DNA of 64,000 nucleotides from Longimicrobium sp. Its GTDB lineage: Bacteria > Gemmatimonadota > Gemmatimonadetes > Longimicrobiales > Longimicrobiaceae. The stretch spans positions 1-64,000 of the forward strand of contig DASVWD010000099.1 of NCBI GenBank assembly GCA_036389795.1, written 5' to 3'. A program made the translations under genes and the position numbers. The notes under the pieces are model-generated. The model saw only the letters and a program-made list of their open reading frames with translations, made no database searches and was not told the DNA's origin. Within the stretch, counting starts at the first letter, position 1. Each line of letters opens with the position of its first letter. Below, one piece after another: positions 1,267 through 10,658 of this stretch.

Positions 1267-1923
1267 GTGAGCGTGGAGCGCAGCGCCTACGACGAGAAGC
1301 TGGAGAGCATCCTCCGCGCCGCGGCGGCCATCTTCGCGGAGAAGGGCTACCACCAGGCGTCGATCCGCGACATCGCGCGGGCCACGGGGGTGAGCCTGTC
1401 GGGGCTGTACTACTACTTCGACAGCAAGGAAGAGCTGCTCTTCCTGATCCAGGACCACGCCTTCGGCACCGTGCTGGCCAGCCTGGAGCGCCAGCTGGAG
1501 GGGGTGGAGGAGCCGCACCGGAGGCTACGCGTGCTGATGGAGAACCACCTGCGCTACTTCATGGGCGCGCGCGCGGAGATGAAGGTGCTCTCGCACGAGT
1601 CGGAGTCGCTCACCGGCGAGTACCGCCGGCAGGTGAACGCCAAGAAGCGGCGCCTCTCCGACATCGCCGCCGACATCCTGGGCGAGCTGCGCCCGGCGGG
1701 CGACGTGGACGCGCGGGTGGCCACCTTCTCGCTCTTCGGGATGATGAACTGGCTGTACAACTGGCACCGCCCCGAGAGCGACCCGCCGGTGGAGAAGCTG
1801 GTGGACGACATGTACCGCATCTTCCTGCACGGCTACCTCCCCGACGGCGTCACCGTCCCCGACGACGCCGGCGAGGCCGCCGCGGGCGAAACGCAGCCGA
1901 TCTGGCGATCCGCCCGGGTCTAG
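1267..1923 (+). CDS. TetR/AcrR family transcriptional regulator
   Basis: 218-residue TetR-type repressor. The N-terminal helix-turn-helix spans about residues 29-52 and ends in the family signature SGLYYYFDSKEELL. The C-terminal ligand-binding domain is helical and not identifiable by motif. The frame opens with GTG; a second GTG two codons later is equally possible. The gene stands 52 bp before an acyl-CoA catabolic operon on the same strand. By analogy with PaaR/FadR-type TetR proteins it probably senses an acyl-CoA and represses those genes; this is inferred from position. Confidence 0.85.
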   Translation: MSVERSAYDEKLESILRAAAAIFAEKGYHQASIRDIARATGVSLSGLYYYFDSKEELLFLIQDHAFGTVLASLERQLEGVEEPHRRLRVLMENHLRYFMGARAEMKVLSHESESLTGEYRRQVNAKKRRLSDIAADILGELRPAGDVDARVATFSLFGMMNWLYNWHRPESDPPVEKLVDDMYRIFLHGYLPDGVTVPDDAGEAAAGETQPIWRSARV

Positions 1924-1975
1924 GGGCCCGGGCGCCGCGACCTTTTCCACTTTCCCCGAGAATCCGGAGCGACTG

Positions 1976-2812
1976 ATGGCTACCGCGACCGCTGAAGTGC
2001 CGGCCACCGAGACCGCCGCGAAGACCCTGGTGCACTACGAGGTGCGGGACGGCGTGGCGATCTTCACGCTCGACGACCCGCCGGCCAACACCTACACGCA
2101 CGAGATGATGCGCCAGCTGGACGAGGCGATCCTCCGGGCGCGCTTCGACACGGCGGTCGACGTGATCGTGATCGTGGGGGCGGGCGAGAAGTTCTTCTGC
2201 GCGGGCGCCAACATCAACATGCTGCAGCAGGCCGACCCCACCTGGAAGTACTACTTCTGCCTGCACGCCAACGAGACGCTGCTGCGCCTGGAGCACACGC
2301 CCAAGCTGGTGATCGCGGCCATGAACGGCCACACGGTGGGCGGCGGGCTGGAGATCGCCATGGCGGCCGACCTGCGCGTCGCGCGCCGGGGCGCCGGCAA
2401 GGTGGGGCTCCCCGAGGTGGCGCTGGGCGTGCTCCCCGGCACCGGCGGCACGCAGCGGCTGACGCGGCTGGTGGGCGTCTCCCGGGCGATCGAGCTGATG
2501 GCCGAGGGGGGCAACTTCGACTTCGACCAGGCGGCGCAGCTGGGGATCGTGAACCGGGTGCTGGACGCCGAGAGCCGCGACGCCTTCCTGGAGCAGGTGC
2601 TGGAGTACGCCCGCAAGTTCACGCGCCCCGGCAAGGCCACCTTCGCGGTGGGCAACATCAAGCGCAGCTGCCAGACGGGCGGCGCGCTGCCGCTGGAGCA
2701 GGGGCTGGCGCTGGAGCGCGAGCTGCAGGCGCTGCTCTTCAACTCCAGCGACGCCAAGGAGGGCCTCACGGCCTACGTCGAGAAGCGCCAGCCGCACTTC
2801 TCCGGCAAGTAA
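1976..2812 (+). CDS. enoyl-CoA hydratase/isomerase family protein (PaaF-like)
   Basis: 278-residue crotonase-fold protein. It shows the oxyanion-hole segment FCAGANINMLQ near residues 74-84 and the second hole NGHTVGGGLEIAMAADLRVA near 115-134. Both hydratase acids are present: the Glu of GGGLE and the Glu of LPEVALG. This supports a true enoyl-CoA hydratase (2,3-enoyl-CoA to 3-hydroxyacyl-CoA) in the cytoplasm. It is the first structural gene after the TetR regulator. Its substrate is uncertain; beta-oxidation or the lower part of an aromatic (phenylacetate-like) pathway are both possible. Confidence 0.85.
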   Translation: MATATAEVPATETAAKTLVHYEVRDGVAIFTLDDPPANTYTHEMMRQLDEAILRARFDTAVDVIVIVGAGEKFFCAGANINMLQQADPTWKYYFCLHANETLLRLEHTPKLVIAAMNGHTVGGGLEIAMAADLRVARRGAGKVGLPEVALGVLPGTGGTQRLTRLVGVSRAIELMAEGGNFDFDQAAQLGIVNRVLDAESRDAFLEQVLEYARKFTRPGKATFAVGNIKRSCQTGGALPLEQGLALERELQALLFNSSDAKEGLTAYVEKRQPHFSGK

Positions 2813-2828
2813 GCCGGGTCGGCCGATC

Positions 2829-2871
2829 GGGAGGGAGCCGGGCGCGCGTTCGTCCGGCGCCCTCCTTTTTT
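2829..2871 (+). terminator. possible terminator after enoyl-CoA hydratase
   Basis: An imperfect G+C-rich hairpin (GGGCGC arm pairing with GCGCCC, flanked by GAGG/CCTC) is followed directly by TTTTTT. It lies about 15 bp after the stop codon. It would separate the hydratase from the aldehyde dehydrogenase 440 bp downstream. Confidence 0.55.
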
Positions 2872-2907
2872 GTCGGCGGGGGATGGGAGATGGTGTCGTC
2901 TCGACCC

Positions 2908-3010
2908 GTAGGGGCGAGGCATGCCTCGACCGGCGGATGCCGGCCCGTGCGCGGCAGGCGGCCTCTTGCGCGGATGCCGCCTGTGCTCGGACTCGCAGGC
3001 TCGCCCCTAC
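2908..3010 (+). repeat. 103-bp element with terminal inverted repeats (copy 1)
   Basis: The element begins GTAGGGGCGAG and ends CTCGCCCCTAC, a perfect terminal inverted repeat. The interior has a GGCATGCC dyad and a GGATGCCG motif. A second copy of exactly the same length lies at 38413-38515 with a closely similar interior. It fills much of the 440-bp gap after the enoyl-CoA hydratase. It could be a MITE-like or REP-like element. Confidence 0.65.
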
Positions 3011-3042
3011 GAAACACACCGCGAGAGGCGGCCCCCTCGACA

Positions 3043-3120
3043 GGGTGAGTAGATTCCTCGGGAGCGCCCGATCGTCCGTGCACGGGGAAGTTCCGCGCGG
3101 GCGCTCCCTCGGAATGACAG
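3043..3120. repeat. TAGATTCCTCGG...TCGGAATGACA element
   Basis: A short element runs from GAGTAGATTCCTCGGG to CCCTCGGAATGACA, with an inner hairpin (GGGAGCGCCCG against CGGGCGCTCCC). A related form (GAGTAGATCCCTCGGG to CCTCGGGATGACAT) lies at 46968-47008. It is a dispersed intergenic repeat of unknown role. Confidence 0.5.
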
Positions 3121-3150
3121 CTACGGGTGAAGCACGGAGCCCCGTCGAGT

Positions 3151-3176
3151 ACCCTCTCCCGAAGTTGGGAGAGGGT
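3151..3176. repeat. ACCCTCTCCC hairpin repeat (copy 1)
   Basis: ACCCTCTCCC and GGGAGAGGGT form a perfect 10-bp stem with loop GAAGTT. Copies or variants occur at 26002-26027, 38352-38377 and 50131-50156. Three are followed by G+C-rich GGTGAGGGCC-like sequence on one side. It may act as a REP-type element or weak terminator. Confidence 0.6.
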
Positions 3177-3256
3177 GGCGACGCGGTAGCGGCGCCGGGT
3201 GAGGGCCCCGCGCGGAAGTCCGCCGGCGAGCAGCGAACCTTCTGATTCCTGGAACG

Positions 3257-4735
3257 ATGGCAGACACGACGACGGCGGCGGGGGCCGAGGTCCAGCCCGG
3301 CAGGCTCTTCATCGGCGGCGAGTGGCAGGACGCGGCGTCGGGGAAGACGTTCGAGACCTGGAACCCGTCCACGGGCGAGGTGCTCGCCGAGGTGGCCGAG
3401 GGCGGCGCGGACGACGTGGACCGCGCCGTGAAGGCCGCGCGCGAGGCGTTCGAGCGCGGGCCGTGGGCGGGGATGGACGCCCGCAAGCGGGGGAAGCTCC
3501 TCTGGGCCATCGCCGACCGGCTGGAGGAGCGCGCCGACGAGCTGGCGCGGCTGGAGACGCTCGACAACGGCAAGCCGCTGCGCGAGGCGCGCGCCTTCGA
3601 CATCGAGGGCAGCATCGAGTGCTTCCGCTACTACGCCGGCTGGGCCGACAAGCTCGACGGCGACGTGATCCCGATCCCGGGTCCGTACCTGAACTACACG
3701 CGGCGCGAGCCGGTGGGCGTCTGCGGACAGATCATCCCGTGGAACTACCCGCTGCAGATGGCCGCGTGGAAGGTGGCGCCGGCGCTGGCGTGCGGGAACA
3801 CCGTGGTCCTCAAGCCCGCCGAGCAGACGCCGCTCACCGCGCTGGAGCTGGCGCGCGCCGCGCACGAGGCGGGGCTGCCGCCGGGGGTGCTGAACGTGGT
3901 CCCCGGCTTCGGCGAGACGGCGGGCGCCGCGCTGGTGCGCCACCCCGACGTGGACAAGATCGCCTTCACGGGGTCGACCGAGGTCGGCAAGGTCATCCAG
4001 CGCGAGGCGGCGGCCACCCTCAAGCGCGTCTCCCTGGAGCTGGGCGGCAAGAGCCCCAACATCGTGCTGGCCGACGCCGACCTGGAGGCGGCGGTGCGCG
4101 GGGCCACCTCGGCCATCTTCTACAACACCGGCCAGGCCTGCACCGCGGGCTCGCGGCTCCTGGTGGAAGAGAAGGTGCGCGAGGAGTTCATGGAGAAGCT
4201 GGTCAAGCGCGCCGGGGGGATGCGCCCCGGCGACCCGCTGGACCCCAAGTGCCGGATGGGCCCGCTGGTCTCGCGCGAGCAGCTGGACCGGGTGATGGGC
4301 TTCGTGGAGAAGGGGAAGGAGGAGGGCGCCGAGCTGGTGCTGGGCGGCGACCGCCCCGAGATCGACGGGAAGAAGGGCTACTTCCTGAACCCCACCATCT
4401 TCGACCGCGTGACGCCGGAGATGACCATCGCGCGCGAGGAGATCTTCGGCCCCGTGCTGGCGGTGACCCCCTTCGCCGACGCGGAGGAGGCGGTCGAGAT
4501 CGGCAACCGCACCATCTACGGCCTGGCCGCCGCGGTGTGGACGCAGGACGTGAAGAAGGCGCACAGGATCGCGCACGCGCTGCGCGCCGGCACGGTGTGG
4601 GTGAACATGTACCACACGCTCGACACCGGCTCGCCGTTCGGCGGCTACAAGCAGTCCGGCTACGGCCGCGAGCTGGGCAGGTACGCGCTCGACCTGTACA
4701 CGCAGGTGAAGAGCATCTGGGTGAACCTGGGGTAA
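3257..4735 (+). CDS. NAD(P)+-dependent aldehyde dehydrogenase
   Basis: 492-residue class-I-type ALDH of full length. The nucleophile Cys lies in YNTGQACTAGSR (near residue 296) and the general-base Glu in SLELGGKSPN (near 262). The catalytic Asn is in IPWNYPLQM, and EEIFGPVLAV is the usual ALDH signature. It oxidises an aldehyde to the acid with NAD(P)+ in the cytosol. It sits between an enoyl-CoA hydratase and a thiolase in the same orientation. It may therefore oxidise a semialdehyde or aldehyde feeding the same acyl-CoA pathway, an inference from the neighbourhood. The substrate cannot be read from sequence. Confidence 0.92.
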   Translation: MADTTTAAGAEVQPGRLFIGGEWQDAASGKTFETWNPSTGEVLAEVAEGGADDVDRAVKAAREAFERGPWAGMDARKRGKLLWAIADRLEERADELARLETLDNGKPLREARAFDIEGSIECFRYYAGWADKLDGDVIPIPGPYLNYTRREPVGVCGQIIPWNYPLQMAAWKVAPALACGNTVVLKPAEQTPLTALELARAAHEAGLPPGVLNVVPGFGETAGAALVRHPDVDKIAFTGSTEVGKVIQREAAATLKRVSLELGGKSPNIVLADADLEAAVRGATSAIFYNTGQACTAGSRLLVEEKVREEFMEKLVKRAGGMRPGDPLDPKCRMGPLVSREQLDRVMGFVEKGKEEGAELVLGGDRPEIDGKKGYFLNPTIFDRVTPEMTIAREEIFGPVLAVTPFADAEEAVEIGNRTIYGLAAAVWTQDVKKAHRIAHALRAGTVWVNMYHTLDTGSPFGGYKQSGYGRELGRYALDLYTQVKSIWVNLG

Positions 4736-4738
4736 CGG

Positions 4739-4824
4739 CAGTGCCCAGGGCCCAGTCCCCAGTGCCCAGGAACTGCGGGGTTGTTCCTGGGCACTGGGCA
4801 CTGGGCACTAGGCACTAGGCACTG
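4739..4824. repeat. heptamer tandem repeat tract with hairpin (C1)
   Basis: GGCACTG/GGCACTA units in tandem follow an inverted set of CAGTGCC units around GAACTGCGGGG, so the tract can fold back on itself. It ends five bases before the thiolase start codon and fills the whole ALDH-thiolase gap. It is related to the 7-8-bp tracts at 10873, 14711, 27981, 38716 and 52024. Confidence 0.75.
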
Positions 4825-4829
4825 ATTCA

Positions 4830-6031
<1,202 letters not shown>

Positions 6032-6035
<4 letters not shown>

Positions 6036-6844
6036 CGGAGCGCGCGGAGGCGGCGGAGAGCGGCCTGGTCCTGCTGCGCGTGGAGGACGGCGTCGCCTGG
6101 ATCACCCTCAACCGCCCCGACCGGCTGAACGCCTTCGCCGGGGCGATGCGCGACGACCTGTACGAGGCCATCGACCGCGCGGACGCCGAGCCCGCGGCGC
6201 GCGTGCTGGTGATCACCGGCGCCGGCCGCGGCTTCTGCACCGGCGCCGACGTGGAGGTGATGAGCGACCTGCTCGCCCGCGGCGACGACGCGGCGTTCGA
6301 GCGGCTGGTGGAGGCGGGGATGCGGGTGATCCGGCGCCTGGCGCGCGTCGGGAAGCCCGTGGTCGCCGCGGTGAACGGCCCCGCGGCGGGCGCCGGCGCG
6401 TCGCTCGCCCTCGCCTGCGACGTGCGGATCGCGTCGGAGCGCGCGTCGATCGGGATCACCTTCAACCGCATCGGCCTGCACCCCGACTGGGGGGCGACGT
6501 ACTTCCTCCCGCGCCTGGTGGGCCGCGGCCGCGCCGCCGAGCTGGTGCTGACGGGGCGGATGGTGGAGGCGGAGGAGGCGCTGCGCATCGGCCTCTTTGA
6601 GCGCGTGGTCCCGGCGGACGCGTTCGACGAGGAGGTGAGGAAGCTGGCCCTGGAGCTCGCCGCCAGGCCGCCCCTGGCGCTCGCCGCCGCGAAACGCTCT
6701 CTCGCCCGCTCCCTCGACGAGCCGCTGGACGCCATGCTCGCCGCCGAGCGCGACGCCCAGATGCACTGCTTCCGCTCCGCCGACGCGCGCGAGGGGATCG
6801 CCGCCTTCAACGAGAAGCGCCGGCCGGTGTTCCGGGGGGAGTAG
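6032..6844 (+). CDS. enoyl-CoA isomerase family protein (PaaG-like)
   Basis: 270-residue crotonase-fold protein with oxyanion-hole motif GRGFCTGADVEVM. The position equivalent to the first hydratase Glu reads GAGAS, and the second region reads FNRIGLHPDWGATYFLPRLVG. This keeps the PD-x-G-x-T-x-x-LPR pattern, with an Asp, of Delta3-Delta2 isomerases and PaaG. It is therefore more likely an isomerase than a hydratase, for example for 1,2-epoxyphenylacetyl-CoA or 3-enoyl-CoA. The ATG overlaps the thiolase stop by four bases. With the hydratase and PaaJ/PcaF-type thiolase it suggests the lower part of a phenylacetate-like route. Confidence 0.85.
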
Positions 6845-7084: not shown

Positions 7085-7249
7085 TCACACGCAGGGGCGT
7101 CGGTCCGACGGCCCGGTGGTGGGGCAGACGGAGTCGTCGCTCCAGGCCCAGTCGTAGCCCCGCACCGTTCCCTTCTCCCGGGCGGGCGCGGCGGTCTCGA
7201 AGGAGACGACCGCCAGCTCCTCCGGGTCCAGCGTCAGCCTCTTCGTCAT
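7085..7249 (-). CDS. lanthipeptide-like RiPP precursor (paralogue 1)
   Basis: 54-residue peptide. The leader MTKRLTLDPEELAVVSFETA has the L-x-LD-x-x-L-x-V-x-SFET pattern seen in class I lanthipeptide (pinensin-like) precursors of Gemmatimonadota. The putative core from about residue 38 carries two Cys (42 and 53) and Ser/Thr at 40, 44, 45 and 48, ending RRPCV. GGAG precedes the ATG by 8 bases. It is nearly identical to the next gene. No LanB, LanC, protease or transporter is present in the window, so modification is inferred from the leader and the Cys/Ser/Thr layout only. Confidence 0.7.
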   Translation of the reverse strand: MTKRLTLDPEELAVVSFETAAPAREKGTVRGYDWAWSDDSVCPTTGPSDRRPCV

Positions 7250-7329
7250 CGTTCCGGTCTCCGGCATTCGTGTGGGCAGCGGGCCCCGAGGATTTCCCGG
7301 GCTGCTGCGTCGAGGTGCGGGGAATCACG

Positions 7330-7494
7330 TCACACGCAGGGGCGCCGGTCAGACGGCGCGGTGGTGGGGCAGATGGACTCGTCGCTCCAAGCCCAGTCGT
7401 GGCCCCGCACCGTTCCCTTTTCCCGGGCCGGCGCGGCGGTCTCGAAGGAGACGACCGCCAGCTCATCCAGGTCCAGCGTCAGCTTCTTCGTCAT
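7330..7494 (-). CDS. lanthipeptide-like RiPP precursor (paralogue 2)
   Basis: 54-residue tandem paralogue of the gene 245 bp away. It differs at only a few positions, for example LDLDEL for LDPEEL and ESICPTTAP for DSVCPTTGP. Both Cys and all likely dehydratable Ser/Thr are kept. GGAG stands upstream of the ATG. The duplication extends beyond the coding part into both flanks, so it is recent. The first copy's strong downstream hairpin is degraded here, which could allow read-through into paralogue 1. Confidence 0.7.
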   Translation of the reverse strand: MTKKLTLDLDELAVVSFETAAPAREKGTVRGHDWAWSDESICPTTAPSDRRPCV

Positions 7495-7863
7495 CGTTCC
7501 AGTCTCCGACGTTCGGGTGGGCGGACCCGGCGCCGGCGGCGTTCGCCCGGTGCGCCGGGCCCGGGAGCAAGGTGGCCCCGTTCCGCCCGCCGGACGACGA
7601 GGATGGGACGAAATGCGACCCGCGCGGCACGAGCGGCTCCTGCCGGCGAGGAAGACGTACCCACCCCGGCCGAGTGCAGGCCTGCGTCCACCAGCTGCGC
7701 CAATCCCGGTGTATAGATCACAAAAAGACCGTCGTGCGTACAGGATTGCCGCCGCAGGTGCTGCCATGGTGGATCAGGCGCAAATCTCTTCTTTCCTATT
7801 CCGTCTTAATTATCTTGCCAGGCATATCGTCAGCGTACCCCCACCCAGCACGCGGAGGACGGC
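7495..7863. promoter_or_regulatory. divergent upstream region of precursor genes
   Basis: 369 bp between oppositely transcribed precursor genes. The part from about 7700 to 7850 is clearly AT-richer than its surroundings (for example TGTATAGATCACAAAAAG and CTTAATTATCTTG) and probably holds divergent promoters. No well-spaced -35/-10 pair was found. The part near 7500-7690 is G+C-rich and without a supported gene. Confidence 0.35.
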
Positions 7864-8052
7864 ATGAAGAAGCGCAGCCTCAGCATCGACCGGCTGGAGA
7901 TCGACAGCTTCGAGACCGGCATCCACCCCCTGAGCGCGGCGATGGTGATGACCGGGACGGAGTGCTCCTCGGGCTACATGTGCACCACCGTGCTGACCAC
8001 CTGCTGCCCCGAGAACTGCAACACCGACACGCAGGACCTCGGCAAGCGCTGA
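7864..8052 (+). CDS. lanthipeptide-like RiPP precursor, five-Cys
   Basis: 62-residue peptide. Its leader (SLSIDRLEIDSFETG) shares the SFET pattern with the neighbours. The C-terminal part holds Cys at 34, 40, 47, 48 and 52, with many Thr (CTTVLTTCCPENC). This would suit several (methyl)lanthionine rings, though disulfides are possible. GGAGG lies five bases before the ATG. The next precursor follows after 29 bp on the same strand. It is unrelated to the 7085/7330 pair in its core, so the cluster encodes different products. Confidence 0.7.
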   Translation: MKKRSLSIDRLEIDSFETGIHPLSAAMVMTGTECSSGYMCTTVLTTCCPENCNTDTQDLGKR

Positions 8053-8081
8053 CCCTCACCCCGACCGATCGGAGGCCCGCG

Positions 8082-8246
8082 ATGAAGAACAGGATCGAGG
8101 TAGACCAGCTCACGGTGGAGACGTTCGAGACCGGCGCGGCGCCCATGGAAGAGCTTCGCTCCGGCTCGTCGGGACACGGCTGCACCGTGTTCACCACCTG
8201 CTCGCCGGGCTGCTGCGACACCACCCAGCCGGACACCGGCGACTGA
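8082..8246 (+). CDS. lanthipeptide-like RiPP precursor, four-Cys
   Basis: 54-residue peptide. Leader IEVDQLTVETFETG keeps the family pattern with TFET for SFET. The core has Cys at 34, 40, 44 and 45 (HGCTVFTTCSPGCC) and a Thr-rich tail. CTVFTTC resembles the CTTVLTTC of the upstream precursor, suggesting they are paralogues processed by the same enzymes. GGAGG precedes the ATG. The start codon follows closely on the upstream gene, so they are co-transcribed. A bidirectional hairpin follows. Confidence 0.7.
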   Translation: MKNRIEVDQLTVETFETGAAPMEELRSGSSGHGCTVFTTCSPGCCDTTQPDTGD

Positions 8247-8323
8247 GCGACGCACGCCGCCGCCAGGCCGGACGCCCAGCGCCGGGGGGCCGCGGACGCG
8301 CCCGGCGGCGCGTTTCACGAGGA

Positions 8324-8353
8324 AGCCCCGCCACGATCGCTCGTGGCGGGGCT
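8324..8353. terminator. bidirectional terminator between convergent precursors
   Basis: AGCCCCGCCACGA and TCGTGGCGGGGCT form a perfect 13-bp stem with a 4-nt loop. It sits midway between two convergent peptide genes and could end both transcripts. Confidence 0.65.
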
Positions 8354-8382
8354 CCCTGTCTCCAGGCCGGCTGGCGCCGCGC

Positions 8383-8571
8383 TCAGACGCAGCAGTAGCG
8401 GGTCCGGATCTGCTCGTACCCGTCCTTGGGCTCGCGGGAGTCGATGCCGCACGTGTACCCCCCGCTGCATTGCTCCTCGTGCGCGTGCGCCGTCCCCCTC
8501 CCGTCGGCGCCGGCGTCGGGCTCGAAGCTCGCCACCTCCAGGTCGTCCAGTTCCAGCCGCAGCTTTTTCAT
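8383..8571 (-). CDS. lanthipeptide-like RiPP precursor, CC-terminal
   Basis: 62-residue peptide starting MKKLRLELDDLEVASFEPDA, the fifth member of the leader family, with SFEP in place of SFET. It has Cys at 35, 41, 60 and 61. It ends RTRYCCV, with an unusually long Cys-free middle that contains few Ser/Thr. GAGGGAG precedes the ATG by three to four bases. It faces the 7864/8082 pair across the shared terminator. The core differs from the other members. Confidence 0.68.
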   Translation of the reverse strand: MKKLRLELDDLEVASFEPDAGADGRGTAHAHEEQCSGGYTCGIDSREPKDGYEQIRTRYCCV

Positions 8572-9464: not shown

Positions 9465-10658
9465 GTGCCCGCTCTCCCCCGTGTCCTCGCCGCCCTCCTG
9501 GTGCTGACGATGCTCCCCGCGACCGACGGCTCCGCCCAGGCGCGCCCCCGCGCGCGCGAGGCGGGCGTGGTGGCCGGCATCCTCCCGCCCGGCCCGCTGA
9601 ACGCCATCACCGACGTGGCCGGCGTGCGCGTGGGCCAGGTGACGGTCGTCGAGGGCGACTCCGTCCACACCGGGGTGACGGCGGTCCTCCCGCACGGGGG
9701 CGACCTCTTCCGCGAGCGCGTCCCCGCCGCCATCCACGTGGGCAACGGCTTCGGCAAGCTGCTGGGCGTCACGCAGGTGCGCGAGCTGGGCGAGCTGGAG
9801 ACCCCGATCCTGCTCACCTGCACCCTCTGTGTCTGGAAGGCGGCCGACGCGATGGTGGCGTGGCTGCTGGCCCGGCCGGGGATGGAGGACGTGCGCTCCA
9901 TCAACCCCGTGGTGGGCGAGACGAACGACGGCGGCCTGAACGACATCCGCGCCCGCCCGATCCGCCCCGAGCACGTGGTCCGCGCCCTGGAGTCGGCCTC
10001 GGCCGGGCCGGTGGAAGAAGGCTCCGTCGGCGCGGGGGCGGGGACGGTGGCCTTCGGGTGGAAGGGGGGGATCGGCACCAGTTCGCGGCGGCTCCCGGCG
10101 AGCCTGGGCGGCCACACGGTGGGGGTGCTGGTGCAGAGCAACTACGGCGGGGTGCTGACGATCAACGGCGCGCCGGTGGGGCGCGAGCTGGGCCGCTACG
10201 CCTTCCAGCGCGAGCTGGCGCCGCCCGCGGCGGGGCCCGGGGACCGCGGCGACGGCAGCATCATGATGGTGGTGGCCACCGACGCCCCGCTCGACGCGCG
10301 CAACCTCGAGCGCCTTGCCGCGCGCGCGCTCACGGGGCTGGCGCGCACGGGGGCCAGCATGACCAACGGCTCGGGCGACTACGTGATCGCCTTCTCCACC
10401 GCCGCCGAGGTGCGCCGCCGCGGAGGCGCCACCCCGGCCAGCGTGGCCGACCTGCCGAACGACGCCCTCTCGCCGCTCTTCCAGGCCGTCGCCGAGGCCA
10501 CGGAGGAGGCGATCTACAACTCGCTCTTCCGCGCCACCACCGTCCGCGGCCGCCGCGCCACCGTCGAGGCCCTCCCGCTGGACCAGACGCTCGAGGTCCT
10601 GCGCCGCTACGACGCGCTCCACTGGGACCGCACGCTGCCGCCGGGCCGCAGGCCGTAG
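9465..10658 (+). CDS. secreted P1 family peptidase (DmpA/BapA-like)
   Basis: 397-residue N-terminal-nucleophile hydrolase of MEROPS S58 type. A signal peptide (hydrophobic residues 5-20, then GSAQA) precedes the domain opening GPLNAITDVAGVRVGQVTV. The autocatalytic cleavage point is the Gly-Ser of GDGSIMMVVATDAPL, near residue 265; the new N-terminal Ser becomes the nucleophile. Family members are L-aminopeptidases, D-esterases or beta-peptidyl aminopeptidases. The chosen start is GTG. The signal peptide places it in the periplasm or outside. Confidence 0.88.
   Translation: MPALPRVLAALLVLTMLPATDGSAQARPRAREAGVVAGILPPGPLNAITDVAGVRVGQVTVVEGDSVHTGVTAVLPHGGDLFRERVPAAIHVGNGFGKLLGVTQVRELGELETPILLTCTLCVWKAADAMVAWLLARPGMEDVRSINPVVGETNDGGLNDIRARPIRPEHVVRALESASAGPVEEGSVGAGAGTVAFGWKGGIGTSSRRLPASLGGHTVGVLVQSNYGGVLTINGAPVGRELGRYAFQRELAPPAAGPGDRGDGSIMMVVATDAPLDARNLERLAARALTGLARTGASMTNGSGDYVIAFSTAAEVRRRGGATPASVADLPNDALSPLFQAVAEATEEAIYNSLFRATTVRGRRATVEALPLDQTLEVLRRYDALHWDRTLPPGRRP

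What the first reader, a model, noticed from the sequence alone, without database searches (positions are those of the whole stretch)
7085..8571. Orphan cluster of five lanthipeptide-like precursors with three core types
Five short genes within 1.5 kb share a leader pattern (L-x-LD-x-L-x-V-x-SFET or variants). Their cores differ: two-Cys (7085, 7330), four- and five-Cys CTT-rich (8082, 7864) and a CC-terminal one (8383). No LanB/LanC, LanM, protease or exporter lies within the window on either side. The enzymes would have to act in trans, and one set may serve several leader-related products.
Basis: partly seen in the sequence, partly recalled or inferred. Interest (0 to 1): 0.7.

Follow-up and report, generated by a model that had tools for sequence, protein, structure and literature searches.

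The report
Orphan members of lanthipeptide precursor library
Five small peptide genes in this bacterium are part of a genome-wide set of about 150 related precursor genes with conserved front ends and highly variable, cysteine-rich back ends, which one distant set of ring-forming enzymes very probably processes.

Summary
Five ATG-started ORFs at 7085-8571 share a pinensin-like leader and have Cys/Ser/Thr-rich cores. They are part of a much larger set: the own genome holds about 150 such ORFs (all 150 scored candidates match; 155 local ORFs, none in a reversed-DNA control), mostly single genes far from any enzyme. It has one class I set: a split LanB (PF04738, PF14028) plus LanC on contig C225; an exporter, HlyD adaptor and subtilase lie beside 13 precursors on C206. 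Of 146 genomes of the order, PF14028 occurs in all 11 with the leader and in 1 of 135 without; LanM and HopA1 enzymes do not track it. Relatives keep enzymes, precursors, exporter and protease together. LanC carries an extra C-terminal domain modelled as a TglI/NGO1945-like partner with a RiPP recognition element. Best reading: a prochlorosin-like, trans-acting library system, but class I, and with more precursors than the 83 I found in print. Modification is inferred; no chemistry was tested. "No protease nearby" is not literally right: an S58 peptidase lies 0.9 kb away.

The parts
7085..7249 (-). precursor 1, two-Cys core; leader 7154-7249 (to GTVRGY), core about 7088-7153
   Evidence: leader profile 52.2 bits; 87% identical to precursor 2
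7330..7494 (-). precursor 2, two-Cys core, tandem paralogue of precursor 1; leader 7399-7494, core about 7333-7398
   Evidence: leader profile 59.1 bits; NF038180 E 0.0017, below cut-off
7864..8052 (+). precursor 3, five-Cys CTT-rich core; leader lacks the GTVxG motif, leader/core boundary not set
   Evidence: 21.9 bits; E 0.00145 in the whole-genome search
8082..8246 (+). precursor 4, four-Cys CTT-rich core; leader lacks the GTVxG motif
   Evidence: 21.3 bits; not listed; an ORF with a similar core lies at the syntenic place in genome G040 (L145 5412-5579)
8383..8571 (-). precursor 5, four-Cys core ending CCV; leader 8479-8571 (to GTAHAH)
   Evidence: 47.7 bits; NF038180 E 0.00064, below cut-off

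Best explanation
The five genes are orphan members of a genome-wide library of about 150 class I lanthipeptide precursors. A conserved leader strand (KLxLxLDxLxVxSFET) is bound by the recognition element of the single split dehydratase (glutamylation protein plus separate elimination protein) and, I propose, also by a recognition element fused to the C-terminus of the LanC cyclase. Ser/Thr residues next to Cys in the variable cores are dehydrated and closed into (methyl)lanthionine rings. The products are then exported by the ABC/HlyD pair and the leader is removed by the subtilase; those three genes lie beside 13 precursors on contig C206. Because recognition lies in the leader, precursors can scatter and their cores can diversify freely. 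Shown here: the genes, leader conservation, core hypervariability, the single class I enzyme set, co-occurrence, the operon in relatives. Inferred: binding, dehydration, cyclisation, export, cleavage, and any biological role.
For: About 150 leader ORFs in the own genome; one PF14028 and one class I PF04738 gene. PF14028 in 11 of 11 leader-bearing and 1 of 135 other genomes of the order (Fisher p 1e-15, not corrected for kinship); within the genus 7 of 7 against 0 of 3. LanM in only 6 of 11 leader-bearing genomes, missing from G040 with at least 150 leaders, and present in leader-free G038. HopA1 in 2 of 11 against 1 of 12. Operon LanB-elimination-LanC-precursor(s)-ABC-HlyD-S8 in G003 and G015, and in parts in G030 and G040. 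LanC keeps the WCHGxPG and CHGxxG motifs. Cores: Cys preceded by Ser/Thr 558 of 1085 against 217 (sd 12) in shuffles; mean pairwise identity 50% in leaders against 30% in cores, 27% for shuffled cores. The LanC extension resembles TglI and RRE domains and is present in the LanC of all 8 genomes with 11 or more leaders.
Against: No chemistry, expression or binding was tested. In the own genome no precursor was found on the enzyme contig C225, which ends about 370 bases after LanC. The two CTT-rich window leaders are weak and lack the GTVxG motif. LanM shows a weak association too (6 of 11 against 1 of 12, p 0.03), so a side role in genomes that have it is not excluded. G111 has PF14028 without a detected leader. 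The assembly is fragmented (285 contigs, 3.75% contamination).
Confidence: 0.8

Rival explanations
1. The orphan precursors are substrates of the class II LanM pair on contig C28 (or of the LanC plus HopA1-domain locus on C285) rather than of the class I set.
For: Two LanM genes (DUF4135 plus LANC_like) lie on C28 and a LanC beside a HopA1-domain protein on C285. LanM is more frequent among leader-bearing genomes, 6 of 11 against 1 of 12.
Against: G040, with at least 150 leaders, has neither LanM nor HopA1; G038 has LanM and G024 has HopA1 without leaders. The operon partner of the leader in relatives is class I.
Confidence: 0.06
2. The five (and many of the 150) are relics: copies that drifted away from the operon and are no longer expressed or modified.
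For: They are far from the enzymes; two of the five have weak leaders; cores show little similarity to one another.
Against: All 155 start with ATG, 147 of 153 have a ribosome-site-like word, all 133 cores with a defined boundary keep at least two Cys, Ser/Thr-Cys pairing is far above shuffles, and a cluster persists at the same place in G040.
Confidence: 0.08
3. They are unmodified, secreted cysteine-rich peptides (disulfide or metal binding) whose N-terminal strand is a recognition or export signal only.
For: Very high Cys content (16% of core residues) and a most frequent Cys spacing of four would also suit disulfides or metal binding.
Against: Ser/Thr directly before Cys is over-represented 2.6-fold, the leader holds the LxLD type of motif that LanB recognition elements bind (PMC12710340, passage), and leader presence tracks a glutamate-elimination domain.
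Confidence: 0.06

Closest known systems
Pinensins (Chitinophaga), leader family NF038180
   Same: Leader (LTLDDLRIESF...GGIAGH) aligns with ours; split LanB and LanC; Chitinophaga precursors in L165, L168 and L198 match our leader profile weakly (about 18 bits), and the L165 one matches NF038180 strongly.
   Different: Here about 150 precursors per genome, Cys/Thr-repetitive cores, an elimination protein only 23-25% identical to the Chitinophaga ones, and a LanC with an extra recognition-type domain. How many pinensin-type precursors a Chitinophaga genome has was not counted.
Prochlorosins / synechococsins (ProcM, SyncM)
   Same: One enzyme set, many scattered precursors with conserved leader and hypervariable core, singly and in tandem.
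   Different: Those are class II (LanM) with Nif11 leaders and a GG site; the highest count I found in print is 83 (PMC10783134, passage). Here class I, LxLD leader, no GG site.
TglI / NGO1945 (DUF2063-type) partner proteins of MNIO enzymes
   Same: Fold of the LanC extension: TglI Z 12.7 and 12.4 (rmsd 5.3 and 5.0, 200 and 198 aligned), NGO1945 Z 11.3, with an RRE-like C-terminal half.
   Different: Those are separate subunits of iron enzymes; here the domain is fused to a lanthionine cyclase.

Membership tests
Class I lanthipeptide, pinensin type | pinensin-type leader in the precursor (NF038180 over its cut-off) | tested here: inconclusive
   None of the five reaches the cut-off; 18 other own-genome ORFs do; the own-leader profile links all five to them
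Class I lanthipeptide, pinensin type | split LanB: glutamylation and elimination on separate proteins | tested here: met
   PF04738 at L037 8025-11516 and PF14028 at L037 11500-12552
Class I lanthipeptide, pinensin type | LanC cyclase with metal-ligand motifs | tested here: met
   PF05147, WCHGAPG and LCHGRGG; that these hold the metal ligands is recalled
Class I lanthipeptide, pinensin type | precursor clustered with its enzymes | tested here: not met
   Window precursors on C99, enzymes on C225, exporter/protease on C206; clustered in relatives' operons. This lowers 'own gene cluster', not 'class I substrate'
Class I lanthipeptide, pinensin type | lanthionine or methyllanthionine in the product | not testable with these tools
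   needs mass spectrometry
Prochlorosin system | LanM (ProcM-like) synthetase serving the precursors | tested here: not met
   LanM absent from G040 with at least 150 leaders
Prochlorosin system | many scattered precursors, conserved leader, hypervariable core | tested here: met
Double-glycine leader with C39 peptidase exporter | C39 domain in the exporter | tested here: not met
   The G030 exporter L125 2806-4617, 83% identical to the own one on C206, shows the ABC_membrane and ABC_tran domains but no C39 domain in Pfam; an S8 subtilase lies next to it instead

The most novel reading that the evidence does not exclude
This is the first class I counterpart of the prochlorosin system and larger than it: a single split LanB plus a LanC fused to its own leader-reading domain makes a library of about 150 different lanthipeptides from precursors scattered over the whole chromosome, with the same system in at least eight related genomes of one Gemmatimonadota family.
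Probability: 0.55. Interest if true: 0.85.

Novelty: new variant of a known kind. Interest (0 to 1): 0.72.

Why it matters
Natural one-enzyme, many-substrate peptide libraries are known from prochlorosins, whose function is still debated. A class I case with about 150 cores per genome, in an unrelated phylum, would show that such libraries arose independently, would offer a very tolerant dehydratase/cyclase pair for making peptide libraries, and makes the question 'what are such libraries for' testable by comparing related species with 150, 80, 11, 1 and 0 precursors. A cyclase carrying its own recognition element would suggest how both enzymes find the same leader in trans.

Tried and rejected
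Pfam and NCBIfam hits of the five to UreE/UreE_C and MIB_HERC2 are sub-cut-off composition matches and were dropped. Upstream 6-mer enrichment gave no convincing shared promoter and is not used. Double-glycine/C39 export was considered and not supported. Class II and HopA1-type enzymes as the main partners were tested and do not track. The syntenic comparison worked fully only in G040; in the other seven of the eight relatives fetched the thiolase block was not found next to the S58 gene, in several because the contig ends. VIA-align lists cannot show folds that Foldseek missed. The second structure job and two Foldseek jobs were not used.

Literature: eight searches bear on novelty: no paper in the library holds both 'pinensin' and 'Longimicrobi', three hold 'Longimicrobi' and 'lanthipeptide'; a search for split LanB with remote or scattered precursors found none. 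For a LanC fused to a DUF2063/TglI-like domain one search was made and passages of PMC12710340, PMC12452194 and PMC9016710 were read; no such fusion was mentioned in what I saw. Passages only were seen of PMC7268733, PMC10783134, PMC11251773, PMC8692599 and PMC12328550. Subscription papers, including the original pinensin paper, were not seen.

Full report
What is there. They sit in a chromosomal setting between a TetR / enoyl-CoA hydratase / aldehyde dehydrogenase / thiolase / enoyl-CoA hydratase block (1267-6844) and an S58 peptidase gene (9465-10658) (the second hydratase is my reading of the sequence, the others are Pfam matches). GC content of the cluster is 69.5% against 72.5% for the window, so nothing marks it strongly as foreign.

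They belong to a very large set. The curated pinensin leader model NF038180 gave 117 own-genome matches at E up to 10, of which 18 are over its cut-off; in the 14 control genomes 8 ring at that loose threshold but none over the cut-off. A profile built from 61 own leaders matched all 150 candidates that the tool would score at E <= 0.01 (513 first-look candidates, so 150 is a lower bound, though the last matches are weak and the list looks nearly exhausted). A local search of the 78 stretches that I took found 155 ORFs at 15 bits or more and none in the same DNA reversed. All 155 start with ATG, and 147 of 153 have a ribosome-site-like word. They form 79 groups: 56 single genes, 12 pairs, 2 triples and 9 groups of five or more, the window cluster being one of the groups of five.

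Leaders are conserved, cores are not. In 133 of 155 the leader ends in GT[VLA]xxx, nearly always with Gly or Ala as the second x (68 and 61 of 133). Over 1500 random pairs, leaders are on average 50% identical and cores 30%, hardly more than shuffled cores (27%). Cores are 16% Cys and 13% Thr; every one of the 133 has at least two Cys; 558 of 1085 Cys follow Ser or Thr directly, against 217 (sd 12) after shuffling; the commonest Cys spacing is four. By a simple BLAST grouping, 154 cores fall into 89 groups, 67 of them single; of the window cores only the two-Cys pair group together.

One class I enzyme set. The own genome has one PF14028 protein and one PF04738 protein, adjacent to a LanC on contig C225, downstream of ParB and bactofilin genes. 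No precursor was found on C225, whose sequence ends about 370 bases after LanC. The other LANC_like proteins are two LanM on C28 and a LanC beside a HopA1-domain protein on C285. On C206 an ABC exporter, a HlyD adaptor and an S8 protease (nearest NCBIfam model QhpE, below its cut-off) lie next to 13 precursors. In relatives all of these stand together: LanB, elimination protein, LanC, precursor(s), ABC, HlyD, S8 in G003 and G015, with parts of the same order in G030 and G040 where the fetched stretch or contig ends cut it. Ten of the 15 relatives' enzyme stretches that I took hold at least one leader ORF; five (L116, L121, L126, L128, L130) hold none.

Which enzyme serves the leader. Of 146 genomes of the order, 11 have the leader and 12 have PF14028: all 11 plus G111. 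Within the closest family it is 10 of 10 against 0 of 11; within the genus 7 of 7 against 0 of 3 (Fisher values, not corrected for kinship). LanM occurs in 6 of 11 leader-bearing and 1 of 12 other genomes of the 23 examined, HopA1 in 2 of 11 and 1 of 12. G040, with at least 150 leaders, has neither. Leader counts per genome at E <= 0.001 are 148 (own), 150 or more (G030, G040), 80, 74, 50, 19, 11, 5, 1 and 1. A wider draw of 395 genomes of the phylum added one more carrier, G264 with two matches. Of the eight genomes with 11 or more leaders, seven have a LanB that is itself L123 (G040) or at least 54% identical to it, the eighth (G009) has a contig too short to show its LanB, and all eight have a LanC with the C-terminal extension; G021, with one leader, has a more distant LanB (37%) and a 415-residue LanC.

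An unusual LanC. After the metal motifs (WCHGAPG, LCHGRGG) the LanC continues in the same frame; its last 235 or so residues were modelled (mean pLDDT 84.7, 8 sequences). The model matches TglI of the TglHI complex (Foldseek E 1.1e-5 and 2.5e-5; Z 12.7 and 12.4) and NGO1945 (Z 11.3), and residues about 115-230 match RiPP recognition elements with bound leaders or PqqD (Z 6.3-6.6). The latter Z values alone would be weak, but they agree with the TglI match, whose C-terminal domain is described as an RRE that is expected to meet an F[N/D]LD motif (PMC9016710, passages). The extension is found in the LanC of all eight expanded genomes and, by profile, in LanCs of the assemblies L155, L158, L160, L161 (Acidobacteriota) and L157 (Gemmatimonadetes); it is not found in L039, L116, L127, L129 or L164, and L130 is cut by its contig end. 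Acidobacteriota loci L158, L160 and L161 have one leader ORF each beside the enzymes, with CGST-type repeats in L161.

Evolution at the window site. In G040 the block thiolase - enoyl-CoA hydratase - precursors - S58 peptidase is kept, with three leader ORFs instead of five; one of them (L145 5412-5579, 16.3 adjusted bits) has a core like the CTT-rich window cores, the two-Cys pair is missing, and the others differ. So the place is stable while genes and cores turn over.

How it most likely works. The LxLD stretch of the leader is of the kind that LanB recognition elements bind (FxLD to LxLD named as variation in PMC12710340, passage). I therefore read the system as: leader binding by the dehydratase and probably by the LanC extension; Ser/Thr dehydration; ring closure; export by ABC/HlyD; leader removal by the subtilase. 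Everything after the gene inventory and the co-occurrence is inference.

What is known. The pattern works like prochlorosins (class II; at most 83 precursors in the paper I saw, PMC10783134, passage) but is not a member: enzyme class and leader differ. The leader and split LanB relate it to pinensins, the only lanthipeptides isolated from Bacteroidetes at the time of PMC7268733 (passages); that survey limited precursors to seven genes from a LanC-type protein, which would miss this arrangement. The draft genome paper of Longimicrobium terrae lists three lanthipeptide regions and says its RiPP clusters resemble no known compound, with no mention of scattered precursors (PMC7291104, whole text). 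NCBI's pipeline would name some of the own ORFs 'pinensin family lanthipeptide' (18 are over the cut-off), so single members may already carry that label; the whole set, its scale and its link to one enzyme locus I did not find described.

Noticed in passing
L037:14328-15038 (own C225, LanC C-terminus): LanC cyclase fused to a TglI/NGO1945-like domain with an RRE-like half; also in Acidobacteriota assemblies.
   Followed up: yes
L038:5451-8864 and L038:11204-14335 (own C28): Two LanM-type synthetases close together; their own precursors were not looked for.
   Followed up: partly
L039:7896-10215 (own C285): LanC-type protein next to a HopA1-domain protein, reminiscent of class V lanthipeptide enzymes (recalled); the neighbouring 402-aa ORF has no Pfam match.
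   Followed up: partly
L095:9178-9465, L094:9354-9692, L057:1906-2109 (own genome): Precursors whose cores consist of two or three similar repeats, as if one precursor carried several copies of a product.
   Followed up: no
L122:13999-14241 and L124:4824-5096 (relatives G021, G040): Leader ORFs with long Cys repeats spaced by two or three small residues, beside more distant class I enzymes; possibly a second type of product.
   Followed up: no
window 9465-10658 (+): S58 (DmpA-type) peptidase gene next to the cluster, with a close homologue in 8 of 11 relatives searched; link to the precursors unknown.
   Followed up: partly
L120 (G018 C273): Several PF14028 pieces near what looks like the start of an NRPS gene, with one leader ORF; possibly a hybrid cluster.
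   Followed up: no
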